Of a stretch of 59,803 bases of DNA, positions 17,343 to 57,152 are shown piece by piece. The notes beneath the pieces were generated by a model. It had not been told where the DNA came from, did no database searches, and was given only the letters and a program-made list of their open reading frames with translations. Made by a program: the position numbers and the translations under genes. The stretch is taken from IMG/VR virus record IMGVR_UViG_3300033993_001438, positions 1 to 59,803 of that record; one strand, 5' to 3'. This stretch comes from a virus. Numbering within the stretch: the stretch's first letter is position 1; each line of letters opens with the position of its first letter.

Positions 17343-18266
17343 CTAGACATACACCACAGGTACCACCTGCTTGATGTTGTCCTTGGGCACAATCTGGCAG
17401 TCGTCCGTAAGCTCAAACTCTGGAATCTGGGCGTATCCGTTGTCCCCGTCGTTGCCCGGAGGCCCTGGGAATCCCGGGAGGGTGACAATGGTCGTCACGC
17501 CGTCCCGGCCTTGGATGCCCATGCGGCCCCGCCTGCCATCGCGGCCCCTGGCCCCGCCGAACCCGTCGAATCCATTGGCTCCGTTGAAGCCGTTGAGGCC
17601 GTTGTTGGCAATCCCATCAAACCCGTCGATCCCCGCCGCCCCTGGCGCACCAGCCGGGCCAACGGACACGCCGAATCCGCCGGTCCCGTTCAGGCCCGGT
17701 ATGCCGGCCGCACCAGTCGAACCCGCCGGCCCGGCTGGACCTGCCTGGCCTGACTGGCCGGGGGGATTGTTGTTGATGGTCCGGGCATCGATGTTTTCTA
17801 CGGTGATGTTGTCGCCGTAGGCATCGCCAAACGTGATGGCGCCGCCCACCTGGAACGTCGGCCCGCCGTACGTTGGGTAGGTGTTGAACGCCTGTGAGAT
17901 TGGGAGATTAAACGTATCGCCGCCGTAGCTGTGGAAGTTGGATGGGCCTCTTGAAAACCCAGGGACGTCAACGAACGTGCCGCCTGAGGAGCCGCCTCCA
18001 GGCCCCGGGAGGATTGGCGCAAAGTCCGCCGGGTTCCAGGGAGTCTGCCCCGGGAACCCAGGTGAGTAGCCTCCTCCAGGTCCTGCCCCGTACACGCCGG
18101 ACATGTGATACAGCGACAGGCCTGGCTGTATGGTTACGTTGCCGCGGTGCGTGATCGGCTGCGCGCAGTTACCCAGGAGCTGCATCAACGATTGTGCAAG
18201 CTGGGGAGGCAGTTGCCCGCCAGACAGGCGAGCGAGCGACGGCATGCTCTGGGTGTCAAAGCCCAT
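17343..18266 (-). CDS. Collagen-like repeat protein (307 aa)
   Basis: ATG overlaps the upstream TAA (TAATG). The N-terminal 165 residues are a Gly/Ser/Tyr-rich globular part. Residues about 170-285 hold Gly-X-Y triplets broken into blocks (GQSGQAGPAGPAGSTGAAG, GAPGAAGIDGFDG, GARGRDGRRGRMGIQGRDG), followed by a short C-terminal cap. Phage collagen-like proteins form trimeric fibre stalks or attach to virions. It follows the nozzle-like gene, so a fibre or tail decoration is likely. Confidence 0.85.
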   Translation of the reverse strand: MGFDTQSMPSLARLSGGQLPPQLAQSLMQLLGNCAQPITHRGNVTIQPGLSLYHMSGVYGAGPGGGYSPGFPGQTPWNPADFAPILPGPGGGSSGGTFVDVPGFSRGPSNFHSYGGDTFNLPISQAFNTYPTYGGPTFQVGGAITFGDAYGDNITVENIDARTINNNPPGQSGQAGPAGPAGSTGAAGIPGLNGTGGFGVSVGPAGAPGAAGIDGFDGIANNGLNGFNGANGFDGFGGARGRDGRRGRMGIQGRDGVTTIVTLPGFPGPPGNDGDNGYAQIPEFELTDDCQIVPKDNIKQVVPVVYV

Positions 18267-29713: not shown

Positions 29714-31402
29714 TCACCCCTTTCTGGTAGGACCCAAAACGACATACCCACGCCCGTCATCCCCCTGACGCTTCTTCTTCTCGGCCAGCCACTTTACGTA
29801 CCAGGGCTCGGCGCCCGGCATCGCTGGGGGGGCGTGATACTGTGGCTCGTAGGCGCAGAGGTACTCCAGGCACTGGACGGCGTGGACCTCGCCGCGAGTG
29901 TTGGGCATGTCCGTGATGAACGGACCGTTGTTGCTCTGCACAACCTTCTTCTTGTATCGCTTGATTTCCCGGAGCAGCTCAGGCGTGCCTCCCTCCAGGA
30001 ACTTCACCCGCGTGCTGCCGTCGCCCTGGATGTGCAGCATCTGCCGCACCAGGTTCGTACGGGCAATGATGTCGTCTGACCCAGGCACAAACTGGTAGCC
30101 GCTCATCTGGGCCTTGAGGTTCCGCGTGCGGAGCTGTTCGGAGTACAGGTCGCACGGGAGGCGTCCAGAGCCCAGGTCGCGCAGCGTGCCGCCGTGCATG
30201 TCCATGATGAACGCGTAGAAGTGCTGGTCCTGGGCCTTCTTGGCGAACTCCTCGCCCCAGATCAGGGCGTTGCAATTGCGGATGTACAGCTCGTCATAGA
30301 TCAGCAGGAACTTCTCGTCCGGGGGCACGGCCCCAAACACGCACGCCATGACCGTGTGGCCAGGGTCAATAGCAACATACTTGCACCAGTTGGGCGGTAT
30401 GCCGCCTGGCAGATCCTCCCGCTTGAGGACATGGACCGTGGGGTTGAACGACGGGTACATCAGGATGGAGTCCTGGGTGAACTCGCCTTCCGCCCGCATG
30501 CGAAGCTCGTCCACGCCCAGGGCAGACCACCGGCTGATGTTCTTCTCCTTCTCAGCTTGGTCGATATGGGCGTTATCCAAAAACCTGAAGACGAACTTCT
30601 TGATGATGGGGTTTTCTGTGCCAAGCTCGGCCTCGCGGTCGGCACGCTCACACAGACCCAGCAACGCGTCGTTCTTGGAGTGCGGCATTGCAGACCACAT
30701 CAGGCGGCCCTTGCGGTCTGCGAGACGAGCCTGCATTTCGCCCACCCACGCGGGATTGGAAACGTCCTCGTCCAGGTGGACCAAATCCGCCTGAAATCCC
30801 TGGGGAGGCTCACCCTCAGACGAGAAGAAGTTGATCACCCAGCCGTTGGCGAGCGTGACCTTCTGGCAGTAGCCGGCATTCTTCAGCACCCAGGAGGTGT
30901 CCACCACGTACCGCGGCGGGATCAGCGGCGGAGCCGGCTTGGCCTCGGCAATGCGATCAGCGTCCTGCACGGGGCGGAACGCACGCCAGTCGCCCGTCTC
31001 AAGGTCCTTGATGATCTTGAATGCCCCGGCCTTGAAGAGCATCGGATAGCACACCAGGCCGATGTGCGGCCAGTTCCGGCCAACGATGATCAGGATGCCA
31101 TCCCGCTCCGGGTACTTGCCGTACGGGTCCTGCCCCGTTGCAGCGCGGGCGTCCTCCACAAAGGTGCTGAGGGACTTTCCGCTGCGGTTGCCGCCAAGGA
31201 TGATCCGCTCAGAGCATCGCTCGGAGTGCATGGCGTCCTGGTGTGGCATCGGCTCGTACAGCCGCAACGCCTCAATGCGGCGGCTCTTTAGCTCGGCCTG
31301 GACTTCCTTGAGAACTCCCAGCGTGTGCTGGGTTAGCGCGGCCTTGATGTCCACCCCGTCAGGCTTGGGCGGATCAGGGATCTTGCGCGGGTGCTTCTTC
31401 AC
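29714..31402 (-). CDS. terL: Terminase large subunit (562 aa)
   Basis: GTG 31402 (VKKHPRKIPDPPKP) with GGAGG just before it; an upstream TTG at 31456 is less likely. Walker A GGNRSGKS (70-77), Walker B LVHLDED (D211, E212), then a C-terminal nuclease with VAIDPGH (D346), YDELY (E371) and IMDMHGG (D401). It cuts and pumps DNA into the procapsid through the portal. Overlaps the zinc-ribbon gene by 29 bases, as large and small terminase genes often do. Confidence 0.9.
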   Translation of the reverse strand: MKKHPRKIPDPPKPDGVDIKAALTQHTLGVLKEVQAELKSRRIEALRLYEPMPHQDAMHSERCSERIILGGNRSGKSLSTFVEDARAATGQDPYGKYPERDGILIIVGRNWPHIGLVCYPMLFKAGAFKIIKDLETGDWRAFRPVQDADRIAEAKPAPPLIPPRYVVDTSWVLKNAGYCQKVTLANGWVINFFSSEGEPPQGFQADLVHLDEDVSNPAWVGEMQARLADRKGRLMWSAMPHSKNDALLGLCERADREAELGTENPIIKKFVFRFLDNAHIDQAEKEKNISRWSALGVDELRMRAEGEFTQDSILMYPSFNPTVHVLKREDLPGGIPPNWCKYVAIDPGHTVMACVFGAVPPDEKFLLIYDELYIRNCNALIWGEEFAKKAQDQHFYAFIMDMHGGTLRDLGSGRLPCDLYSEQLRTRNLKAQMSGYQFVPGSDDIIARTNLVRQMLHIQGDGSTRVKFLEGGTPELLREIKRYKKKVVQSNNGPFITDMPNTRGEVHAVQCLEYLCAYEPQYHAPPAMPGAEPWYVKWLAEKKKRQGDDGRGYVVLGPTRKG

Positions 31403-31901
31403 GGACCTCCGGCAAGGCTTCGACGGTGATCGTTCGCAGGGTTGCGGCCGTCTCAATCAGCCGCACCCTCAGCTCGTCCTCAAGCTCCTCCTCGCTCCAC
31501 AGCGTCAGAGGCTTCTTCGCCCCGCCCATCGCGGCGTTGTTCGTCACCAGGCGGACGATGGTTTCCAGCTGCTTTGTCCGGAACGCCCCGCCCGGCGGGC
31601 TATCGTAGTACTGCTTCATAAACAGATTGGCGAAGCCCCTGGTCCCGCCCATGTAGTCCAGCAGCGTCTCAAGCAGCTCAGCGCTGTGTGGGATATTCCC
31701 ACCACCAAGCCTCGCCGCCTTGCAGAACACATCGACCGCGTCTCGCTCAATCTGGTCAAGGCGGTCATCCTTCTTCTGCTTTCGCCTCTTGCGTTCGTAG
31801 GCCGTGCGGCAGGCCTTGCACCGCGGGTGACGCTTGCCGTCAGACGCAAGGTGGAACGCCTCGTCCGGCAGGTCCTTCTTGCACTTGACGCAGGTTCTCA
31901 C
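31374..31901 (-). CDS. Zinc-ribbon protein, candidate small terminase subunit (175 aa)
   Basis: GTG start overlaps the previous stop (GTGA). Begins MRTCVKCKKDLPDEAFHLAS, with C4, C7, C28, C31 forming a zinc site, followed by a Lys/Arg stretch and then a helical bundle (LLETLLDYMGGTRGFANLFM; AFRTKQLETIVRLVTNNAAM). Its position just before the large subunit, DNA-binding start and oligomer-like helices suggest a small terminase, but this is inference from context and architecture. Confidence 0.6.
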   Translation of the reverse strand: MRTCVKCKKDLPDEAFHLASDGKRHPRCKACRTAYERKRRKQKKDDRLDQIERDAVDVFCKAARLGGGNIPHSAELLETLLDYMGGTRGFANLFMKQYYDSPPGGAFRTKQLETIVRLVTNNAAMGGAKKPLTLWSEEELEDELRVRLIETAATLRTITVEALPEVREEAPAQDP

Positions 31902-33310
31902 GGATTAGCCATCCACACGCTGCCTGCTGTTCGCCAGCCGGAAAACGCCTCGCGAACCGCCTTGCCCACGCCAGGGAAGACGCCGTAGTCATGTCCCGCG
32001 ATCAGGTGCTGTGCCATGGGCCGCCACATGGCGATGTCCTTCTTGACCGCCTCGTACGTATGCTCGGCGTCGATGTAGACGATGTCGAAATCCGTACCAG
32101 TGGCCAGGAAATGCACCGACGCCTCGGCGGAGCTTCCGCGGAACGGCTTGATGCTGCCGGCCTCGCGGTACCTGGCGGTGTTTCGGAGGAACGTCTGGTA
32201 CGCCGTCTCCGGATCCACTCCGGCTGTGCCGTCGTCATGCCGACTGCCCTGCCAGTGGTCTACGCAATACACCGTGGCCCCTAGGGATGCCATGAGAATT
32301 GCGGACCTGCCTGCCCATGATCCGATTTCTGCGATCACGGGATTCCGTTTGTGGGCGTCCTGGAAGTCTTTGATCATCCTCCGGATTGCGTCACAGTCCC
32401 GCTCCGGAAGCTCCATGCCAAGACCGTCAAAGGACGACTGCTTCTTGAGCGTGTCCAGCCACTCCGGTGCCTTGAGGTCGCAGAGCTTGACGCCGACTTC
32501 ATAGTTGCCGGACCAGCAGTCCTTGAGCTTGGCCGACACGCCAGCGGCATCGATGACCTGCGGCTTGCCGACACACTTGGGCTTCCAGTGACCAGCCCAC
32601 GCATCCCAGTTGCAGTACACCGGGTTGTAGCCCAGCTTCTGCGTGCCGACGAGCGACAGGTCGCGGGTCATGGTGACGTCTTCCGTGGACGCCTTCTCGG
32701 CACAGAAGTGGTCCTTCCACTCGTAGTAGAACCACGGCTTGTCGTCCGTCGTCTTGGGCTCCGTGAGCGAGAACGCCCGCATGTCATACATGATCAGCCC
32801 GGTGGGCAGTGCGGCGCACTCCTGGATGCCGGCCATCTTGACCGCCGTGTGCCGGTCATACATCTCAAGCTGGAAGTCCGGGCCAGGGTTGTGGCTCTGC
32901 ATGTTGTTCCAGCGGAACACGTACACGCACTCCACTGGCGGCGGCCCACAGTAGGGGGCGCCGATCACACATGGCCCCTTGGAGTAGTGGTCCACAAAGA
33001 AGTCGAAGCTGGTCTGGAAGAATGGCTTCGCGTCAGGTGCGCCAGCGTGAACGTCCGGGTGCATGTCGGAGTCCACCATCACCAGGCAGTCAACACCGTA
33101 CTCCCGGGCCATGACAACCGCCCTGTTGCGGGTCATGGTGATCGGCGTGTCCGCCAGGTTCCAAACGCGGATCTGGTCGATCCGTGAGTCCCTGGAGAGA
33201 TCAGCGACCAGCGGAACCATCCACTCCCGGATGTTGGGCACCTCAGACGAGATGCCGCCGTTGCCGCCGTAGGAGAAGGTCACAAAGCCGACGTTGAACT
33301 TCTGCTGCAT
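31898..33310 (-). CDS. Fused glycosyltransferase-2 and SAM methyltransferase (470 aa)
   Basis: ATG 33310 with AAGGTG. Residues 1-290 resemble a GT-A-fold glycosyltransferase: GFVTFSYGGNGG at the N-terminus, NRAVVMAREYG, and a metal-binding D-x-D, MVDSDMH (80-82). Residues 300-470 are a class I methyltransferase of the Methyltransf_24 type: motif I EIGSWAGRS (328-336), acidic D351 in YCVDHW, and FDIVYIDAEHTYEAVKKDIA. Two enzymes in one chain suggest coupled glycan transfer and methylation on a virion or surface sugar. A promoter with a palindrome lies just upstream. Confidence 0.75.
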   Translation of the reverse strand: MQQKFNVGFVTFSYGGNGGISSEVPNIREWMVPLVADLSRDSRIDQIRVWNLADTPITMTRNRAVVMAREYGVDCLVMVDSDMHPDVHAGAPDAKPFFQTSFDFFVDHYSKGPCVIGAPYCGPPPVECVYVFRWNNMQSHNPGPDFQLEMYDRHTAVKMAGIQECAALPTGLIMYDMRAFSLTEPKTTDDKPWFYYEWKDHFCAEKASTEDVTMTRDLSLVGTQKLGYNPVYCNWDAWAGHWKPKCVGKPQVIDAAGVSAKLKDCWSGNYEVGVKLCDLKAPEWLDTLKKQSSFDGLGMELPERDCDAIRRMIKDFQDAHKRNPVIAEIGSWAGRSAILMASLGATVYCVDHWQGSRHDDGTAGVDPETAYQTFLRNTARYREAGSIKPFRGSSAEASVHFLATGTDFDIVYIDAEHTYEAVKKDIAMWRPMAQHLIAGHDYGVFPGVGKAVREAFSGWRTAGSVWMANP

Positions 33311-33336
33311 GGAACACCTTGGGGGGAGGGTTCATT

Positions 33337-33365
33337 AGTGTACTTGCGTACATCTATAGCGTCAA
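33337..33365 (-). promoter_or_regulatory. Sigma70-type promoter overlapping an operator-like palindrome
   Basis: On the minus strand TTGACG (33365-33360) is separated by 17 bases from TACACT (33342-33337), upstream of the glycosyltransferase-methyltransferase gene. The palindrome TGTAC-ttgc-GTACA (33339-33352) covers most of the -10 region, a position typical of repression. The same palindrome occurs at 46851-46864 and 58465-58478. Confidence 0.6.
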
Positions 33366-33369
33366 CCGG

Positions 33370-35424
33370 CTAAAAAGCAGCCGTGGGGTTGAGCCTTCTG
33401 ACCATGTTTCGCTGCTGAGCGGTCAGCTGATCCCACTGCGTGCGATCATCATCAAGAGCAGATGCAAAATTCATAAGGTCGTTGTACTCGCGGTACTCCG
33501 GAGATTTGAAACCCCCTTCCCTGAACTTGCCAGCCTTCGCCCTCCGGAGAGCGGCTGTTCGCAGTTCCTCAAGCCGCTTTAGCTTTGCGTCAATGTCCGC
33601 CGACTGCGCCTGCTTGCGAGGGGCGTCTTCTTCCATTAACCGCTGAAGTCTCGCCGCATTTTCCGCGGCGCCTTCTGGGGTTGAGCCCCAGATTGTGTTG
33701 CCGGTGCGGCCCTTGCCGGTCCTGATTATCGGCTCCGTCCCGTTGCTTGCGTACACCTCAACAGGCTTACCGGACCAATCTAAGACTTGGTACTGACCGT
33801 TCGGCATCCTGCGAACCGTGTCGCCCACAAACAGGGACTTGTAGAACGGCAGAGAAGTCAGGTCGGTGACGGCGCTTGGATCAGCCGGCTGCTGGGGGGC
33901 AGGCGCGGCGGGCGGAGGAGGCGCTGGAGTGCCGTCCCCAAACCGCGATACGTCATAAGAAACTACGCCACTCACCGGGCTGGGTCGCCAGTTCCACTGC
34001 CCGTTACTGTAGGTAACGGCCTTGCCGGTTCCTGGGTCAACGCGGCTGGTGCCCTCGGCCGGCGGCTGATACGCCGCATTGCGATCCGCCTGATCCAACT
34101 CTCCCCGCAGCCGGGCCACCGGAGATTTTCCTGGCATCCATCCGGTCCCCGGGCGTGGGGCGATGCCGGTTCCGCCGTACTCCTCGCCGGTCTGCGGGTT
34201 GTGCCAGTCCTGAACTACCATGAGCTTGGGGCCGCCCGGGTTTGGGTCGTAGAAGTCTCCAGCAATTTCGCTTATAGATCGCGCGCGACGTTGCGGGGCC
34301 CCCTGAGACGGCGGAGCGACCGGGTTTGCTTGGCCGGGCCGGGAAGGAGGCATCATCCCCAGTTCCATCATTTTCTTTCTGGCGTTCTCCGCAGCAGGCC
34401 CGTCAGATTTCAGCGCCCAGTCGCGCACGCTAGGCGTGGACAGGTACTCCTTCCAGATGCCTTCCCCGCCGCCGGCGCTCCGGCCGGACCCGCCGCGGCG
34501 ATCTGGAGGCGCGCCGGACCCGGGCGCTGGCGCCGGGGCAAGTCCACCGTCAGGGCGCATGGGCCAGTTGCCACTGCCGACGCCCTTGGGGTTTGGCATC
34601 GGCCGAGGATACGGCGGCATGCCGGGGCCGTCTTGGTCCCTGTCGTCTACCCCGTCGCCGTCTGCATCACGCCAGTCCGCTGTCCTGTACCCGCCGCGGA
34701 GTTCTGGAGGCGTGCCGTACCCGGGCGCTGGTCCCTGCTGCCCGCCCATGCCGTACCCGTCGTTCATCGTTCCGCCGGGGTAGTAAGCCTCCGGTGGCGG
34801 GGCCATCAGGCCGGAGAAGGACGGCTGGGCAGGCGTGGCGAATGGGTTCTGCCACCCACCGGCAACCATTTCGTTCGCCTGGCCCAGGAGCGCGTTGAAG
34901 TCAAGCGGCTGGGGCGGGGGCGGAGCTGCGCCACCCATGTACATTCCGGAGTTGGCGAACATCGGCGCCCTCGCCTCGTTGATCCGTTGGATCAGGGCGT
35001 CGCGCTGAGCAAACGCTTGAGACGGGTCGGAGAACTGCTGGCCACCAACACCCACGGCAGACTGCGTGAACGGCACCTGCGGCTGCGCACCGACGGCAGG
35101 CGTCTCTCGCGGCGGCGCGGCCTTTTGCTGTCGCGGCATGGGGCCGGGACGCCCGTTGAAGTACGGCGTGCCGCCTGCGAACATGACATCCCCGCCAAAC
35201 TGCGGCGCGGAGCGCGGGGCACCCTGCTGCTGGTTGTAAGCCTGGAACGGCGTTCCCTGCGAAGGAGGCTGGATGGGCTGGGCACGGCCAGGCGAGTACG
35301 AAGACAGGTCCAGGCCCTTGGGCTGGTTGCCTTGCGGCTGCTGGTAGCCCTGCTCAAGCCCGCCAGCGTTTCCCCCAGCCTTCAGCGGGTTAACGCCCGG
35401 TCGCCCTGGCTGCTGCCGGATCAT
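33370..35424 (-). CDS. Pro/Gly/Gln-rich low-complexity protein (684 aa)
   Basis: ATG overlaps the upstream TGA (TGATG). Disordered composition with many PGRP and QQ runs; a 'DADGDGVDDRDQDGPG' stretch resembles Asp-rich calcium-binding repeats. The C-terminal 150 residues (VRRMPNGQYQVLDWSGKPVE, then a charged helix LKRLEELRTAALRRAKAGKF) are more ordered. In the head operon just after the capsid genes, so possibly an internal scaffold-like or virion-core protein. No enzyme motif. Confidence 0.6.
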   Translation of the reverse strand: MIRQQPGRPGVNPLKAGGNAGGLEQGYQQPQGNQPKGLDLSSYSPGRAQPIQPPSQGTPFQAYNQQQGAPRSAPQFGGDVMFAGGTPYFNGRPGPMPRQQKAAPPRETPAVGAQPQVPFTQSAVGVGGQQFSDPSQAFAQRDALIQRINEARAPMFANSGMYMGGAAPPPPQPLDFNALLGQANEMVAGGWQNPFATPAQPSFSGLMAPPPEAYYPGGTMNDGYGMGGQQGPAPGYGTPPELRGGYRTADWRDADGDGVDDRDQDGPGMPPYPRPMPNPKGVGSGNWPMRPDGGLAPAPAPGSGAPPDRRGGSGRSAGGGEGIWKEYLSTPSVRDWALKSDGPAAENARKKMMELGMMPPSRPGQANPVAPPSQGAPQRRARSISEIAGDFYDPNPGGPKLMVVQDWHNPQTGEEYGGTGIAPRPGTGWMPGKSPVARLRGELDQADRNAAYQPPAEGTSRVDPGTGKAVTYSNGQWNWRPSPVSGVVSYDVSRFGDGTPAPPPPAAPAPQQPADPSAVTDLTSLPFYKSLFVGDTVRRMPNGQYQVLDWSGKPVEVYASNGTEPIIRTGKGRTGNTIWGSTPEGAAENAARLQRLMEEDAPRKQAQSADIDAKLKRLEELRTAALRRAKAGKFREGGFKSPEYREYNDLMNFASALDDDRTQWDQLTAQQRNMVRRLNPTAAF

Positions 35425-35652: not shown

Positions 35653-36207
35653 TCAACTGCGGACGAGATTGACGATGGCGAGGACGTTCTGGGCGGTCGT
35701 ACCCGCCGAGATCGCCCGGCCGATGTAGCCGTTCTGCAGGAAGGTCGCGGCAGCCGTCTGGGCCTGGCCCGCCGTGGTGGAGTGCGTGCTGGCCGCAGCA
35801 GTGAGGGCCACCAGAGCGCTGTCAGCCGCAGCCGTAAGGCCGGGGCCCAGCTTGACCTCCGTCGGACCCTGCACCGTCAGCCAGAACACATCGTTGTTCG
35901 CCACGCCAGAGGCCGGCAGCCACTCGTCCACCACGCCGGCCGAGGCCGCGTCGGTCGCAGCGGTGTAGCCGTTGACCTCAGTGAAGCTGCCAGACTTCCA
36001 CGTGACCACTCGCTTGGGCAGCAGCCGGACGCCGGAGGTGTTCCGGACCGCGACGCACAGCTTGCGGCGATTAGACCGCACGGCGCCAGTCACGGGATTG
36101 ACGTCCGGGAACTCCTTGAGAGCGCCCACCCAGCTGCCGCCGTCGGCAAGCGTTTCGACGCCGAGAGTCTGGCCAAGACCGAACGGAGGATCATTCAGCA
36201 GAGACAT
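35653..36207 (-). CDS. Capsid-associated / decoration-like protein (184 aa)
   Basis: ATG 36207 with AAGGAG. Sequence MSLLNDPPFGLGQTLGVETL, then RKLCVAVRNTSGVRLLPKRV, Ala/Thr-rich beta strands (LVALTAAASTHSTTAGQAQT). The size, location just after the major capsid gene and terminator placement fit a head decoration or stabilising protein (DUF2190-like). No direct family match made. Confidence 0.6.
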   Translation of the reverse strand: MSLLNDPPFGLGQTLGVETLADGGSWVGALKEFPDVNPVTGAVRSNRRKLCVAVRNTSGVRLLPKRVVTWKSGSFTEVNGYTAATDAASAGVVDEWLPASGVANNDVFWLTVQGPTEVKLGPGLTAAADSALVALTAAASTHSTTAGQAQTAAATFLQNGYIGRAISAGTTAQNVLAIVNLVRS

Positions 36208-36223: not shown

Positions 36224-37333
36224 TCAGGCGTAGTTCTTCCACTTGATAAACGACCGCGGGCTCTTGAACTTGAGGTTGCCCAGCGTGCTTACCACGTACC
36301 TATAGCTGTTGGAAATTTCGTCGTAGAAAGGTCCCTCACTGTTGAACATCTGGCCTTCCATGTTCAACAGTTCGACGTTCCCAATCGCCAGACCGTACGC
36401 CGTGTTGGCCGGCACGCCGTACTCGGTGCCGATCTCCACGCCGTCGAACTCCACCGTGGTGAAGCCCAGCGACTTCAGGCCGTTCTCCTTGCTGACGATG
36501 AACCGCTGCTTGTCCTCGTACGCGTTGAGGAAGTCCGTGTACAGCTTCCGGTCCATGACGATCAGGTCGATGGCGTCTTCCTTGGTGTCGTTCCGCTTGG
36601 CCGTGTGGAGGCCCTCGCGGAGCGCCTTGATGCAGTTGGCCGCCCAGGTGGTGCTGCCGAAGAAGTTGCTGGTGTAGTTCACCAGGATCGGAGAGTAGAA
36701 GTCATACTCGCTCTCGGCTCGGCCGTAGGGCCAGACGCCTTCAAGCTGCGAGCCGCCGTAATAGCCCAGCTCCGTCGAAAGCCCAGCGTAGGTGTCGTTG
36801 GGGTACGCAAACGGATCATCGGCGCTGGCGGAACCACGGTCACCGCCGTTGGTCTTGTGGACCGTGTTGGTGGCGCCCATGAACGACTCAAGGCCGTGAT
36901 ATCGCAGCTCGTTGCCAGCGGAACTGCCGTCGATCCAGACCTCCTGCGCGAGGTACTGTTCGATGCTCGTCTGGAGACGCGAGGCCATCTTGCCGGCGAC
37001 GTTGATAAGCGCGCTGGTACCGCGGTTCTCCAGAAGCTCCTTGCGGTACAGGACGTCCGTCGCCTGATAGCCCCGGTACTCAAGGCTGGCGTTCTTCCAG
37101 AGGTTCTGGCGGCTGAAGGAACGCGGAGTCTCCCCGTTGTTCCCGGTCGGCTTATGCAGCCGGTACGACACCTCCCACTCAACGCCGCGCCCAGCCATGT
37201 TCATGCGAACATTGCCGCGCTGTTCGATGGCCGCGAGGACCATGTAACGCCGGAGGCTTGCCACCTCCTCCTCGCGGAGGTAGTTGACAATGGTCGTTGC
37301 AATAGAACGCGCGAAGTCAGTCGTACTGGGCAT
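36224..37333 (-). CDS. Major capsid protein (369 aa)
   Basis: Preceded by the scaffold gene and followed by a small capsid-associated gene. Sequence begins MPSTTDFARSIATTIVNYLR; helical N-arm, then NMAGRGVEWEVSYRLHKPTG, a core with LIVMDRKLYTDFLNAYEDKQ and a C-terminal GPFYDEISNSYRYVVSTLG. Length and gene order match HK97-fold phage capsids. Identification rests mainly on context and composition, though it is the best capsid candidate in the genome. Confidence 0.8.
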   Translation of the reverse strand: MPSTTDFARSIATTIVNYLREEEVASLRRYMVLAAIEQRGNVRMNMAGRGVEWEVSYRLHKPTGNNGETPRSFSRQNLWKNASLEYRGYQATDVLYRKELLENRGTSALINVAGKMASRLQTSIEQYLAQEVWIDGSSAGNELRYHGLESFMGATNTVHKTNGGDRGSASADDPFAYPNDTYAGLSTELGYYGGSQLEGVWPYGRAESEYDFYSPILVNYTSNFFGSTTWAANCIKALREGLHTAKRNDTKEDAIDLIVMDRKLYTDFLNAYEDKQRFIVSKENGLKSLGFTTVEFDGVEIGTEYGVPANTAYGLAIGNVELLNMEGQMFNSEGPFYDEISNSYRYVVSTLGNLKFKSPRSFIKWKNYA

Positions 37334-52755: not shown

Positions 52756-53522
52756 TGGCAAAGGTATGGGGATACGTTCGCGTCAGCACCGACGACCAGG
52801 AGAACTCCGCACAGAACCAGGTGGAGATGATCAAGGAGCGGGCGGCCAAGGAGGGCCTGCCTCTCGCTCACATCTACGTGGACGAGGACGTCACCGGAAA
52901 GATCCCACTCCGCAACCGCCCGCAGGGTCGGCTGTTGTGGGATGCCATGGAGCCCGGCGATGTCCTGTTCTTCTTCCGCGTGGACCGCACGTTCCGTTCG
53001 GTGCGTGACGCCACCGACACGGTCCACACCTGGCTGGACAAGGGCATCAGCCCCGTGATCTTGGACCTGGGGATCGACCTGCGGACGCCTGCCGGCCGCC
53101 TGTTTTTCCACCAGCTCGCCTCTTTCGCGGAGTTTGAGAGGGAGATGATTGGCCAGCGGGTAAGGGAGGTCCACTCTTATTTAAGGAAGCACGGGCTGCC
53201 ACGCGGCAACCGCCCTTACGGCTGGCAACGCGACCGGCCTGGGAAGGGGGCGAGGTTTGTGCCCCTGGATTCCGAGCGGCAACTGGCCGAGCGGGTGGTT
53301 GCGATGCGGGAGGAGGGGATGTCTTACGCCCGGATCGCCTGGGCCCTGATGCGGGAGCGGGTGACGAAGCCGGGGAAGTCTCCGAGCGACAAGGGGAAGG
53401 GCGTTTGGTATTCGATCTCGGAGATCCACGGGCTGGCCAACGCTCATCTTCAGGGATACCCAATCGTCCCGCGACGTCACGTGCGAGCCGGCGGGACGCA
53501 AGAGATGCCGAGCGAATGTTGA
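52755..53522 (+). CDS. Serine recombinase (resolvase/invertase type, 255 aa)
   Basis: Begins MAKVWGYVRVSTDDQENSAQ with the nucleophile S11 and R9, then FFRVDRTFRS (R75, D77, R78, R81) and LGIDLRTPAGRLFFHQLASF, the catalytic N-terminal domain. The C-terminal domain is short and has a LAERVVAMREEGMSYARIAW HTH-like motif. The second integrase-class enzyme in the genome. It may resolve multimers, invert a fibre region or integrate. Its 3' end runs antisense over the sigma-like gene. Confidence 0.85.
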   Translation: MAKVWGYVRVSTDDQENSAQNQVEMIKERAAKEGLPLAHIYVDEDVTGKIPLRNRPQGRLLWDAMEPGDVLFFFRVDRTFRSVRDATDTVHTWLDKGISPVILDLGIDLRTPAGRLFFHQLASFAEFEREMIGQRVREVHSYLRKHGLPRGNRPYGWQRDRPGKGARFVPLDSERQLAERVVAMREEGMSYARIAWALMRERVTKPGKSPSDKGKGVWYSISEIHGLANAHLQGYPIVPRRHVRAGGTQEMPSEC

Positions 53523-53961
53523 GCGAGAACTGCTCACTCATGTCCACAATCCTGGCCTTGCCGATAAACCGGGCCTCCGCCATCCGACGGTCCCGGTCCG
53601 GCATGCCTGCGATTGCGTCGCTGAGGTGGTCTATTTCGTCCGTAACGCCCATGTCGGACTCCGCCGCGTCCATGCCCACCCGCTCGCCCGGGGCCTTGGT
53701 GAGCCTCCGTATGGCCTTGAGCATGGCGTTCAGGATTGCCCTGGCAAAATACTTCTTGGGGTAGGGGAGCAGGGCAGGGTTGTACGTGCGGGCAGCCCGG
53801 CACATGGCTAGGTAACCCTCGCCCTCCAGGTCCGGGATGAGCGCACCCCGTTGCCAAGCCGGGCGGCTCTGGACGAAGTAACGGGCCGCCGTCGCGACCA
53901 GGTCGTAGTACTCAGTGACGAGTTGCTGCTGCCGCTTGGAGAGCTTGGATTGCCTGCTCAT
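53047..53961 (-). CDS. Sigma factor-like protein (304 aa)
   Basis: ATG 53961. Residues about 10-85 match sigma-70 region 2: KLSKRQQQLVTEYYDLVATA, ALIPDLEGEGYLAMCRAART, AILNAMLKAIRRL. Residues about 110-160 form a region 4-like HTH (DRRMAEARFIGKARIVDMSE, SASLASRRLARDV). The region-4 part ends near residue 163; the remaining 140 residues are Pro/Ser/Arg-rich and encoded antisense to the recombinase, since no stop intervenes. Probably redirects host RNA polymerase to late genes. Confidence 0.65.
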   Translation of the reverse strand: MSRQSKLSKRQQQLVTEYYDLVATAARYFVQSRPAWQRGALIPDLEGEGYLAMCRAARTYNPALLPYPKKYFARAILNAMLKAIRRLTKAPGERVGMDAAESDMGVTDEIDHLSDAIAGMPDRDRRMAEARFIGKARIVDMSEQFSLNIRSASLASRRLARDVAGRLGIPEDERWPARGSPRSNTKRPSPCRSETSPASSPAPASGPRRSGRKTSPPPASQPPARPVAARNPGAQTSPPSQAGRVASRKGGCRVAARASLNKSGPPLPAGQSSPSQTPRKRRAGGKTGGRQASAGRSPGPRSRG

Positions 53962-55458: not shown

Positions 55459-55951
55459 CTGCGGCAACCTCCTCCAGGGCCTTGACTAGGGAGGCCCTCT
55501 TGTCAGGCGACAACGCCACATCGTCCTTGCCAATCGCCTTGACCAGGACGTCTTCGATGGCCACATCTAGGCCGGCGTACTTACCGGGGAGGTCGGTGCC
55601 CTTGAACGCCAGGTCCAACGCGTTGGCGTTGGTCGTCCGGAACTTCCCCACCGTGGTGATGATGCGGTCGTCACGCCTGATCACATCCGCAAGCGAGGCG
55701 TAATACGCGCGGACGCGAGCCTTGTCCTGCTTGCTCGCTGACTTGAGGACCGCAGCCACCTTGCTCTGCTCCACGGCCGGCACGTTCACCGCAGCGGTGG
55801 GGAGAAACGCCGCCAGCAGCAGGCCCACGGCGACAATGCCGAGCAGGTTCTTGCCGAGGGCGGCGGGCGTCATCTTGCTGATCAGCGGCCAGGCGTAGAC
55901 CAGGGCCACGCATGCGGAAACGATCACGGCTGCGATTTGGTAGGGGGTCAT
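55445..55951 (-). CDS. Two-span membrane protein (168 aa)
   Basis: ATG overlaps the subtilase TGA (ATGA). Two hydrophobic helices: AAVIVSACVALVYAWPLIS (about 7-25) and LLGIVAVGLLLAAFLPTAAV (36-55), then a soluble C-terminal domain (VAAVLKSASKQDKARVRAYY, and an Asp/Lys-rich helix set). Resembles holin/antiholin or envelope proteins with a periplasm-facing domain. Located between two peptidases, so a lysis or export role is likely. Confidence 0.65.
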   Translation of the reverse strand: MTPYQIAAVIVSACVALVYAWPLISKMTPAALGKNLLGIVAVGLLLAAFLPTAAVNVPAVEQSKVAAVLKSASKQDKARVRAYYASLADVIRRDDRIITTVGKFRTTNANALDLAFKGTDLPGKYAGLDVAIEDVLVKAIGKDDVALSPDKRASLVKALEEVAADAGR

Positions 55952-56832
55952 ACGATTGCCTTGTGGGAATGCTCCAGGGCGGTCGAAGGATTGATCAGCC
56001 CCCAGCCGTACAGGTGGTCATGGCCGGGATCCCCAGCGTCCACGCTGGTGTTCTTGATGACTGCATGCGCCTTGCCTGATCGCGGCGGCGGCATCTGCGG
56101 GATCGCCAGGGCCATGACGCCGGCAACAAACGGCGCCGCCATGCTGGTGCCTGACAGAGTGGCGTACCCTCCGCCCAGCCAACAGGAGGTGATCTCCTCG
56201 CCAGGGGCTGCGACGTCGATCTCCCGGCCGCGGCAGGAGAACTCGCACACACCACCGTCGCGGCCAACGGCACCGACGGCAATGGCTTCCTCATAGGCTG
56301 CGGGGTAGGACACCCGCCCGCCGTCGTTCCCTGCGGCACAGACCAGGATCATCCCTGCCTTGTCCGCAGCACGCACCGCTTCGGTCAGCTCCTCCGTGCG
56401 GACAGGAGCCCCAAGGCTCATCACGCAGATGTCGCACTTGGCCTCAATGGCGAACAGGATTGCTCTGGCGACAGACTCCAGCGACCCGGCGCCGTTGTTG
56501 TTCAGCACCTTGCAGCTGATGATCTCGGCCTGCGGGGCAACCCCAGTCATGGGCCCGCGGGCAGCGATGACACCAGCCACGTGGGTCCCGTGGCCGTTGG
56601 TGTCCGACGCAGAGCAATCCTTCGTAAAGTTGCGATGATCCTTGACAACGCCAATCAGGGCAGGGTGGCTATCGTCCACCCCCGTATCCAGCACGGCCAC
56701 CCGCACGCCGGCCCCCTGGTGACGACTCCAGAGGGCCGGCAGACCGTACGCGGAAATGGACCAGTCCAGGCCTGAGGAGGGCAAGGCCTGTGCGACTGCT
56801 TCTACGCGGTACGGCGGCAGGTGAACGAGCAT
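55948..56832 (-). CDS. Subtilisin-like serine protease, S8 family (294 aa)
   Basis: ATG 56832 overlaps the upstream TGA (TGATG). Catalytic triad complete: D49 in VAVLDTGVDDSHP, H81 in TNGHGTHVAGV, S230 in LSGTSMAAPFVAG, and oxyanion N169 in AAGNDGG. Compact, with no signal sequence or I9 pro-domain visible, so it is probably cytoplasmic or released at lysis. Subtilases are rare in phages. Flanked by membrane and peptidase genes. Confidence 0.85.
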   Translation of the reverse strand: MLVHLPPYRVEAVAQALPSSGLDWSISAYGLPALWSRHQGAGVRVAVLDTGVDDSHPALIGVVKDHRNFTKDCSASDTNGHGTHVAGVIAARGPMTGVAPQAEIISCKVLNNNGAGSLESVARAILFAIEAKCDICVMSLGAPVRTEELTEAVRAADKAGMILVCAAGNDGGRVSYPAAYEEAIAVGAVGRDGGVCEFSCRGREIDVAAPGEEITSCWLGGGYATLSGTSMAAPFVAGVMALAIPQMPPPRSGKAHAVIKNTSVDAGDPGHDHLYGWGLINPSTALEHSHKAIV

Positions 56833-57152
56833 CACTCATCCCTGGACACAAGGACACGGATGAGCGACGTCACAATCGGAGCCACCACGTTCAGGAGGAT
56901 CGGCAGGGCGATCCCCAGGCTCTGGATCTTGGCCAGGTCTTCCTGGGCCTCCTCCTCCGTGATGGCCTGGGCTTGGGCCTGGAACAGAGGGAAGGTTTCG
57001 ATGACGGGCAGCAGAGACTTGGCCACCAGGTAGACGATCTCCAGCTTCTCCGACAGCGTCGCCTCCGCCCACTTGGCGACGATGGCACTGATCTCACGCA
57101 GGACGCTTACGTTCTGCAGCAGCCAGCGAACGACAACAAACTTGTCAACCAT
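56832..57152 (-). CDS. Small membrane-associated protein (106 aa)
   Basis: ATG 57152 behind AGAGGAG. Mostly helical: VDKFVVVRWLLQNVSVLREI, AIVAKWAEATLSEKLEIVYL, then LGIALPILLNVVAPIVTSLI (about 79-100), one C-terminal hydrophobic segment. Ends SRDE. Possibly a holin or scaffold of the lysis module; no family recognised. Confidence 0.6.
   Translation of the reverse strand: MVDKFVVVRWLLQNVSVLREISAIVAKWAEATLSEKLEIVYLVAKSLLPVIETFPLFQAQAQAITEEEAQEDLAKIQSLGIALPILLNVVAPIVTSLIRVLVSRDE

What the first reader, a model, noticed from the sequence alone, without database searches (positions are those of the whole stretch)
31898..33310. Glycosyltransferase fused to a methyltransferase in the head operon
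One chain carries a GT-A-type domain (D-x-D at 80-82) and a Methyltransf_24-type SAM methyltransferase (EIGSWAGRS 328-336, D351). It is placed between terminase and capsid genes with its own promoter and operator-like palindrome. The arrangement suggests a built-in two-step sugar transfer and methylation of a virion protein or the cell surface. Such fusions are uncommon in phage head operons as far as I know.
Basis: partly seen in the sequence, partly recalled or inferred. Interest (0 to 1): 0.68.

Follow-up and report, generated by a model that had tools for sequence, protein, structure and literature searches.

The report
Phage sugar transferase with swappable methyltransferase
A group of uncultured freshwater phages always carries, among its virus-shell genes, a very highly conserved sugar-attaching enzyme, and in about half of them a methyl-attaching enzyme is fused to its end, which suggests these phages coat part of their particle with sugar and sometimes cap that sugar with a methyl group.

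Summary
In detail: window 31898-33310 (-) is one 470-aa ORF. Residues 1-~285 are a GT-A glycosyltransferase: fold match to COLGALT1, STIV A197 and LH3; D80xD82, PTG171, E210-D211 and H241 invariant in 122/122 distinct relatives. Residues ~293-470 are a Methyltransf_24 O-methyltransferase (closest solved fold: the sugar 1-O-methyltransferase MeT1), with SAM and metal-type residues invariant in 54/54.

The fusion is common in this clade but optional. Of 122 distinct GT sequences, about half have MT type A, about half end just after the GT, and two carry a different Methyltransf_24 domain. The tree needs 14 gains, losses or swaps.

The real core is the GT domain. It was present in 71/71 loci found through terminase, in a fixed order MCP-deco-GT-TerS-TerL, and is usually more conserved than MCP, portal and TerL. 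It has no sequence match in Pfam, PHROGs or the PDB.

The promoter claim is supported; the 'operator' palindrome is mostly not conserved; a covarying SD hairpin is. Best reading: obligatory glycosylation of a virion protein with an exchangeable O-methyl cap, as in PBCV-1 A064R. The substrate is untested.

The parts
31898..33310 (-). GT-A glycosyltransferase + Methyltransf_24 fusion ORF, 470 aa
32456..33310 (-). GT-A domain plus conserved linker, residues 1-285 (DxD 80-82; PTG 169-171; TED 209-211; H241)
   Evidence: model m6b45b20f1645 pLDDT 82, pTM 0.78; Foldseek PDB; 122/122 invariant motif residues
31901..32434 (-). C-terminal methyltransferase domain, residues 293-470 (ExGxWAG 328-334; D351; DxxH 414-417; HD 440-441)
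   Evidence: Pfam Methyltransf_24; Foldseek MeT1/COMT; invariance 54/54 for the key residues (D351 in 53/54); absent or replaced in about half of relatives
33312..33333 (-). RBS hairpin: the Shine-Dalgarno (AAGGTG) pairs with an upstream arm across a C-rich loop; conserved with compensatory changes across relatives
33337..33365 (-). sigma70-type promoter TTGACG-17-TACACT, conserved in relatives
33339..33352 (.). palindrome TGTACgcaaGTACA (operator-like), only in 8 of 92 distinct upstream regions
31374..31901 (-). TerS-like protein with N-terminal zinc-finger-like stretch; start overlaps the GT-MT stop by 4 bases
   Evidence: order invariant; TerS role inferred from position
29714..31456 (-). 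terminase large subunit
   Evidence: phrog_2, 1.1e-9
36224..37333 (-). major capsid protein
   Evidence: phrog_9953, 4e-16
35653..36207 (-). small conserved protein after MCP (decoration-like by position), candidate acceptor
   Evidence: position and conservation; function inferred

Best explanation
The protein is a phage-encoded two-step glycan enzyme. The N-terminal metal-dependent GT-A domain transfers a sugar from a host nucleotide-sugar to a phage structural protein (most likely the major capsid protein or the small protein encoded next to it) while heads are being made. The C-terminal class I O-methyltransferase then caps that sugar with a methyl group from SAM. The glycosylation step is obligatory for this phage lineage; the methyl cap is optional and exchangeable, because the MT module has been gained, lost or swapped many times at the same C-terminal junction. 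Shown here: domain identities, intact active-site residues, universality, fixed place in the head operon, modular MT. Inferred: donor sugar, acceptor, order of steps, benefit (masking of the particle, receptor choice or stability).
For: GT-A fold and all four GT-A signature elements named in eLife 2020 (PMC7185993): DxD, G-loop glycine, xED, C-His, invariant in 122/122. Best MT fold is MeT1, a mannoside 1-O-methyltransferase; SAM and metal-type residues invariant in 54/54. GT found in 71/71 loci reached through TerL, order MCP-deco-GT-TerS-TerL in 42/42 complete cases. GT identity to the window exceeds MCP in 31/36, portal in 40/49, TerL in 37/57, so it is core and not a moron. No membrane segment (max KD19 1.17). 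Precedents: PBCV-1 A064R (GT-GT-MT) builds and O-methylates the capsid-protein glycan (PMC9614988); STIV A197, one of the best fold matches (2c0n), is essential and proposed to act on the glycosylated coat protein (PMC10551542); mycobacteriophages glycosylate capsid and tail tube with their own GTs (PMC12363180).
Against: No acceptor or donor is identified. No virion proteomics exist for this uncultured group. Position in the head operon does not prove that a head protein is the acceptor. Other nearby proteins, or a host molecule needed for assembly, are possible. The PDB fold matches of the GT have modest TM-scores (about 0.4-0.45).
Confidence: 0.55

Rival explanations
1. The enzyme modifies the host cell surface (O-antigen, S-layer or other glycan) to block superinfection or aid release, with methylation blocking re-adsorption.
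For: Phage GTs often modify host envelopes (general knowledge); Methyltransf_24/CmcI-type enzymes methylate sugars of cell-surface or secreted molecules (family knowledge, 50 for the family match).
Against: No transmembrane segment; universal and about as conserved as virion core genes or more, where seroconversion genes are normally accessory; placed in the head operon in every locus.
Confidence: 0.17
2. It glycosylates and methylates the collagen-like tail fibre (17343-18266); the best GT fold match is the human collagen galactosyltransferase.
For: COLGALT1 and LH3 are top structural hits; the window encodes a Gly-X-Y fibre.
Against: Gly-X-Y runs were not found in several relatives that keep the GT (G007, G009, G002, G003, although the fetched 20-kb pieces do not cover every base); no lysyl hydroxylase seen; COLGALT1 may simply be a good GT-A template.
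Confidence: 0.1
3. It modifies phage DNA (sugar on a hypermodified base, then methylation), explaining its place beside terminase.
For: Adjacent to terminase; PHROG annotates a family matching the MT as 'DNA methyltransferase'; phage DNA glycosyltransferases exist (general knowledge).
Against: No base-hydroxylating or nucleotide-modifying gene seen among the annotated ORFs (annotation incomplete); MT belongs to Methyltransf_24 with best fold a sugar O-MT, not to DNA MT families.
Confidence: 0.08
4. GT and MT are two unrelated activities that only share a promoter; fusion is for co-expression and the MT acts elsewhere.
For: MT absent or swapped without loss of the GT; MT evolves faster (median pairwise identity 58% vs 77%).
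Against: Two different MT subtypes, both Methyltransf_24, were attached at the same junction; PBCV-1 A064R shows the linked-step logic.
Confidence: 0.1

Closest known systems
PBCV-1 A064R (chlorovirus)
   Same: Viral single chain with GT domains (the first GT-A) and a C-terminal class I MT that O-methylates the transferred sugar of the capsid glycan; a natural MT-truncation variant still glycosylates but does not methylate (PMC9614988).
   Different: Eukaryotic giant virus; two GT domains; gene context and universality of the kind seen here not described in what was read; no sequence relationship shown.
STIV A197
   Same: Compact viral GT-A protein, essential, proposed to act on the coat protein; among the best fold matches (2c0n, E 3e-6).
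   Different: Archaeal virus; 191 residues in the structure; no MT.
Mycobacteriophage virion glycosyltransferases (Che8 gp110, Corndog gp38, Myrna)
   Same: Phage-encoded virion glycosylation shown (PMC12363180); a Che8 GT is a weak fold match (Q855A2, E 1.5e-3); Rhodococcus CB phages carry a GT and an MT gene (PMC13313380).
   Different: GT and MT are separate genes there; GT not reported as a most conserved core gene in what was read.
A0A6J5M7M7 'Methyltransferase FkbM' of an uncultured Caudovirales phage
   Same: A phage chain annotated as FkbM methyltransferase whose model matches the GT domain (2.7e-9), so a GT-MT chain probably exists in other phages.
   Different: 788-residue piece, another MT family; domain layout and gene context not examined.
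Mycobacterium hassiacum MeT1 (6G80/6G7D)
   Same: Best solved fold for the MT domain (9e-9); assayed with Mg2+; methylates an oligomannoside at O-1.
   Different: Stand-alone cellular enzyme, about 21% identity.

Membership tests
GT-A fold glycosyltransferases | GT-A fold | tested here: met
   AF2 model pLDDT 82/pTM 0.78; all 22 PDB hits with E <= 0.001 are GT-A-type glycosyltransferases or LH3, best E 4e-7
GT-A fold glycosyltransferases | DxD, G-loop Gly, xED, C-His | tested here: met
   D80/D82, G171, E210/D211, H241 in 122/122 distinct sequences; feature list from PMC7185993; assignment by order and context, spatial placement not checked
GT-A fold glycosyltransferases | sugar transfer activity | not testable with these tools
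   needs enzyme assay
a known Pfam/PHROG GT family | profile match at cutoff | tested here: not met
   79 members scanned, no credible hit; PDB profile search empty
Methyltransf_24 (PF13578) | profile score above gathering cutoff | tested here: met
   50.6 bits vs 26.3
Methyltransf_24 (PF13578) | SAM glycine motif and metal-type DxxH...HD residues kept | tested here: met
   54/54 distinct sequences; metal role inferred from family knowledge
A064R-type capsid-glycan GT-MT enzyme | GT and MT on one chain | tested here: met
   single ORF
A064R-type capsid-glycan GT-MT enzyme | acts on the capsid glycan | not testable with these tools
   no virion data
A064R-type capsid-glycan GT-MT enzyme | common descent | not tested
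   A064R was not compared directly and did not appear among listed hits; works-like claim only

The most novel reading that the evidence does not exclude
In this phage clade virion glycosylation is an obligatory, ancestral step: a previously unnamed GT family is as much a hallmark gene as the terminase, translated under a conserved SD hairpin, and the C-terminal MT is a cassette that is swapped, lost and regained to change the glycan cap of the particle, a phage counterpart of surface-antigen variation.
Probability: 0.3. Interest if true: 0.72.

Novelty: new variant of a known kind. Interest (0 to 1): 0.52.

Why it matters
Phage glycosyltransferases are usually seen as accessory genes. Here one is universal in a widespread uncultured clade and tends to be more conserved than the capsid protein, which makes virion glycosylation a testable, possibly essential, step in tailed phages. 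The exchangeable MT module gives natural pairs (nearly identical GT, different MT) to test what a methyl cap on a phage glycan does.

Tried and rejected
Two separate genes or an assembly artefact: rejected. Decayed enzyme: rejected, motifs invariant. MT moved elsewhere in the MT-less genomes: a full-length profile found no separate MT in four ~60-kb MT-less records (G006-G009), and tblastn with the window MT found none. Annotated phage homologues: only MT-domain hits at 33-37% identity in three records; TerL and portal have no match in INPHARED. Known GT families: none. Host: two Pirellulaceae genomes hold relatives (2 of 241 in the family; no others in a 392-genome phylum sample), but one Pseudomonadota MAG also does, so the host stays open. 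Direction of MT change (gain vs loss) cannot be fixed: deep relatives L139, L140, L142, L143 and L379 have MT, L083 and L141 do not. A MAFFT alignment of the RBS region was too ragged for pair counting, so a swap test was used instead. The first conservation comparison was biased by GT-based sampling and was repeated with TerL-based sampling. The motif table was printed with a wrong residue offset and was redone.

Full report
OBSERVATION. The ORF at 31898-33310 (-) is real, 470 aa, with DSD at 80-82, EIGSWAGRS at 328-336 and D351 as described. Pfam finds Methyltransf_24 at 328-434 (4e-13) and no credible family in the first 300 residues.

WHAT THE DOMAINS ARE. A model of the whole protein places the MT next to Mycobacterium MeT1, a sugar 1-O-methyltransferase, and COMT-type enzymes. 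A second model of residues 1-285, built on 79 relatives down to 49% identity, is good (pLDDT 82, pTM 0.78) and matches GT-A enzymes: COLGALT1 4e-7, STIV A197 3e-6, LH3 4e-5, ppGalNAcT-2 2.5e-4. TM-scores are modest (about 0.4-0.45), but the four GT-A signature elements (PMC7185993) are all there and invariant in 122 of 122 distinct relatives: D80/D82, G171, E210/D211, H241. By sequence the domain belongs to no family in Pfam, PHROGs or the PDB. The xED aspartate points to an inverting enzyme (inference).

THE FUSION IS MODULAR. IMG/VR holds several hundred relatives (304 confirmed hits). Among 122 distinct GT sequences, 59 are followed by MT type A in the same ORF, 60 have no MT, 2 (L185, L207) carry another Methyltransf_24 domain that the type-A profile does not find, and one is cut off by a contig end but identical in its GT to a type-A sequence. 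The MT-less proteins stop just after the conserved linker VSxKLKxxWExxYxxxVKLVDL. On a GT-domain tree of 75 thinned sequences the label needs 14 changes, at least 8 for type A even if only well-supported branches count. L185 (type B) has a GT nearly identical to that of L030 (type A). In some pairs the GT is 91-95% identical while the MT is 63-70%. Deep relatives with GT, a longer linker and MT (L139, L140, L142, L143, L379) and without MT (L083, L141) both exist, so gain and loss cannot be polarised.

THE GT IS CORE. Relatives were collected again through the terminase so that the sample was not chosen by the GT. All 71 loci with enough flank have the GT. Gene order is MCP-deco-GT-TerS-TerL in all 42 loci that show all five. 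Identity to the window is higher for the GT than for MCP in 31 of 36, portal in 40 of 49 and TerL in 37 of 57. These were the best 80 by TerL, so this says little about more remote phages; there the GT (48-50%) also exceeds TerL, portal and MCP (33-39%), but those three genomes were found through the GT.

EXPRESSION SIGNALS. A sigma70-type site lies at 33365-33337; by itself it is no more than chance for the region, but 38 of 92 distinct upstream regions have one against 1.0 in shuffles. The palindrome is kept in 8 of 92. The Shine-Dalgarno is held in a small hairpin with a C-rich loop; folding the two arms of the same sequence gives -6.9 kcal/mol on average against -5.6 (sd 0.17; none of 300) when arms are swapped between relatives, and different arm pairs (GGCTCC/GGAGCC, ATCACC/GGTGAT, ATTCACC/GGTGAAT) show compensatory change. 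Relatedness can inflate the swap test. The GTG start of the TerS-like gene overlaps the GT-MT stop.

HOW IT MOST LIKELY WORKS. GT step on a virion protein, then a methyl cap by the MT. The closest proven analogue is PBCV-1 A064R, whose chain transfers two rhamnoses and methylates the last one on the capsid-protein glycan, and in which a natural MT truncation leaves the glycan unmethylated (PMC9614988). Virion glycosylation by phage GTs is reported for mycobacteriophages (PMC12363180). The acceptor in this clade is not known; MCP or the adjacent small protein are the first candidates by position. Cell surface, collagen-like fibre and DNA are rivals.

VERDICT. Observation confirmed; interpretation partly supported and shifted: the notable thing is the universal, highly conserved, unnamed GT-A family in the head operon, with the MT as an exchangeable add-on.

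Noticed in passing
window 33312-33333 (-) and about 90 relatives: Conserved hairpin with C-rich loop that holds the Shine-Dalgarno of the GT gene, with compensatory changes; possible translational control. The same C-run-plus-SD pattern was not seen before the other late genes of the window in a quick look.
   Followed up: partly
L139:8007-10568; L339-L344: Large terminase of some relatives is interrupted by an intein-like insert (853-aa ORF in L139 with CLGGDQEIYD...VLHHN borders); matched TerL stretches of 2.1-2.6 kb in L339-L344 suggest more.
   Followed up: no
L186:9487-10164, L139:5330-5998: HNH-like ORFs inserted next to portal or GT genes in some relatives.
   Followed up: no
window 17343-18266: Collagen-like (Gly-X-Y) tail-fibre protein, variable and not found in all relatives.
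   Followed up: partly
window 53047-53961: Phage-encoded sigma-70 region 2 protein (Pfam 23.7 bits, just under its cutoff), which could read the conserved late promoter.
   Followed up: no
window 55948-56835: Subtilase (Peptidase_S8, 4e-56), conserved in related genomes.
   Followed up: no
L082 (Pirellulaceae MAG contig, 55 kb): Related phage contig binned with a Pirellulaceae genome (a second Pirellulaceae genome, G078, has a distant GT-MT); its GT copy is split by frame changes. Hints at planctomycete hosts.
   Followed up: partly
window 33370-35424: 684-aa proline-rich ORF directly upstream of the GT is among the least conserved proteins while its neighbours are highly conserved.
   Followed up: no
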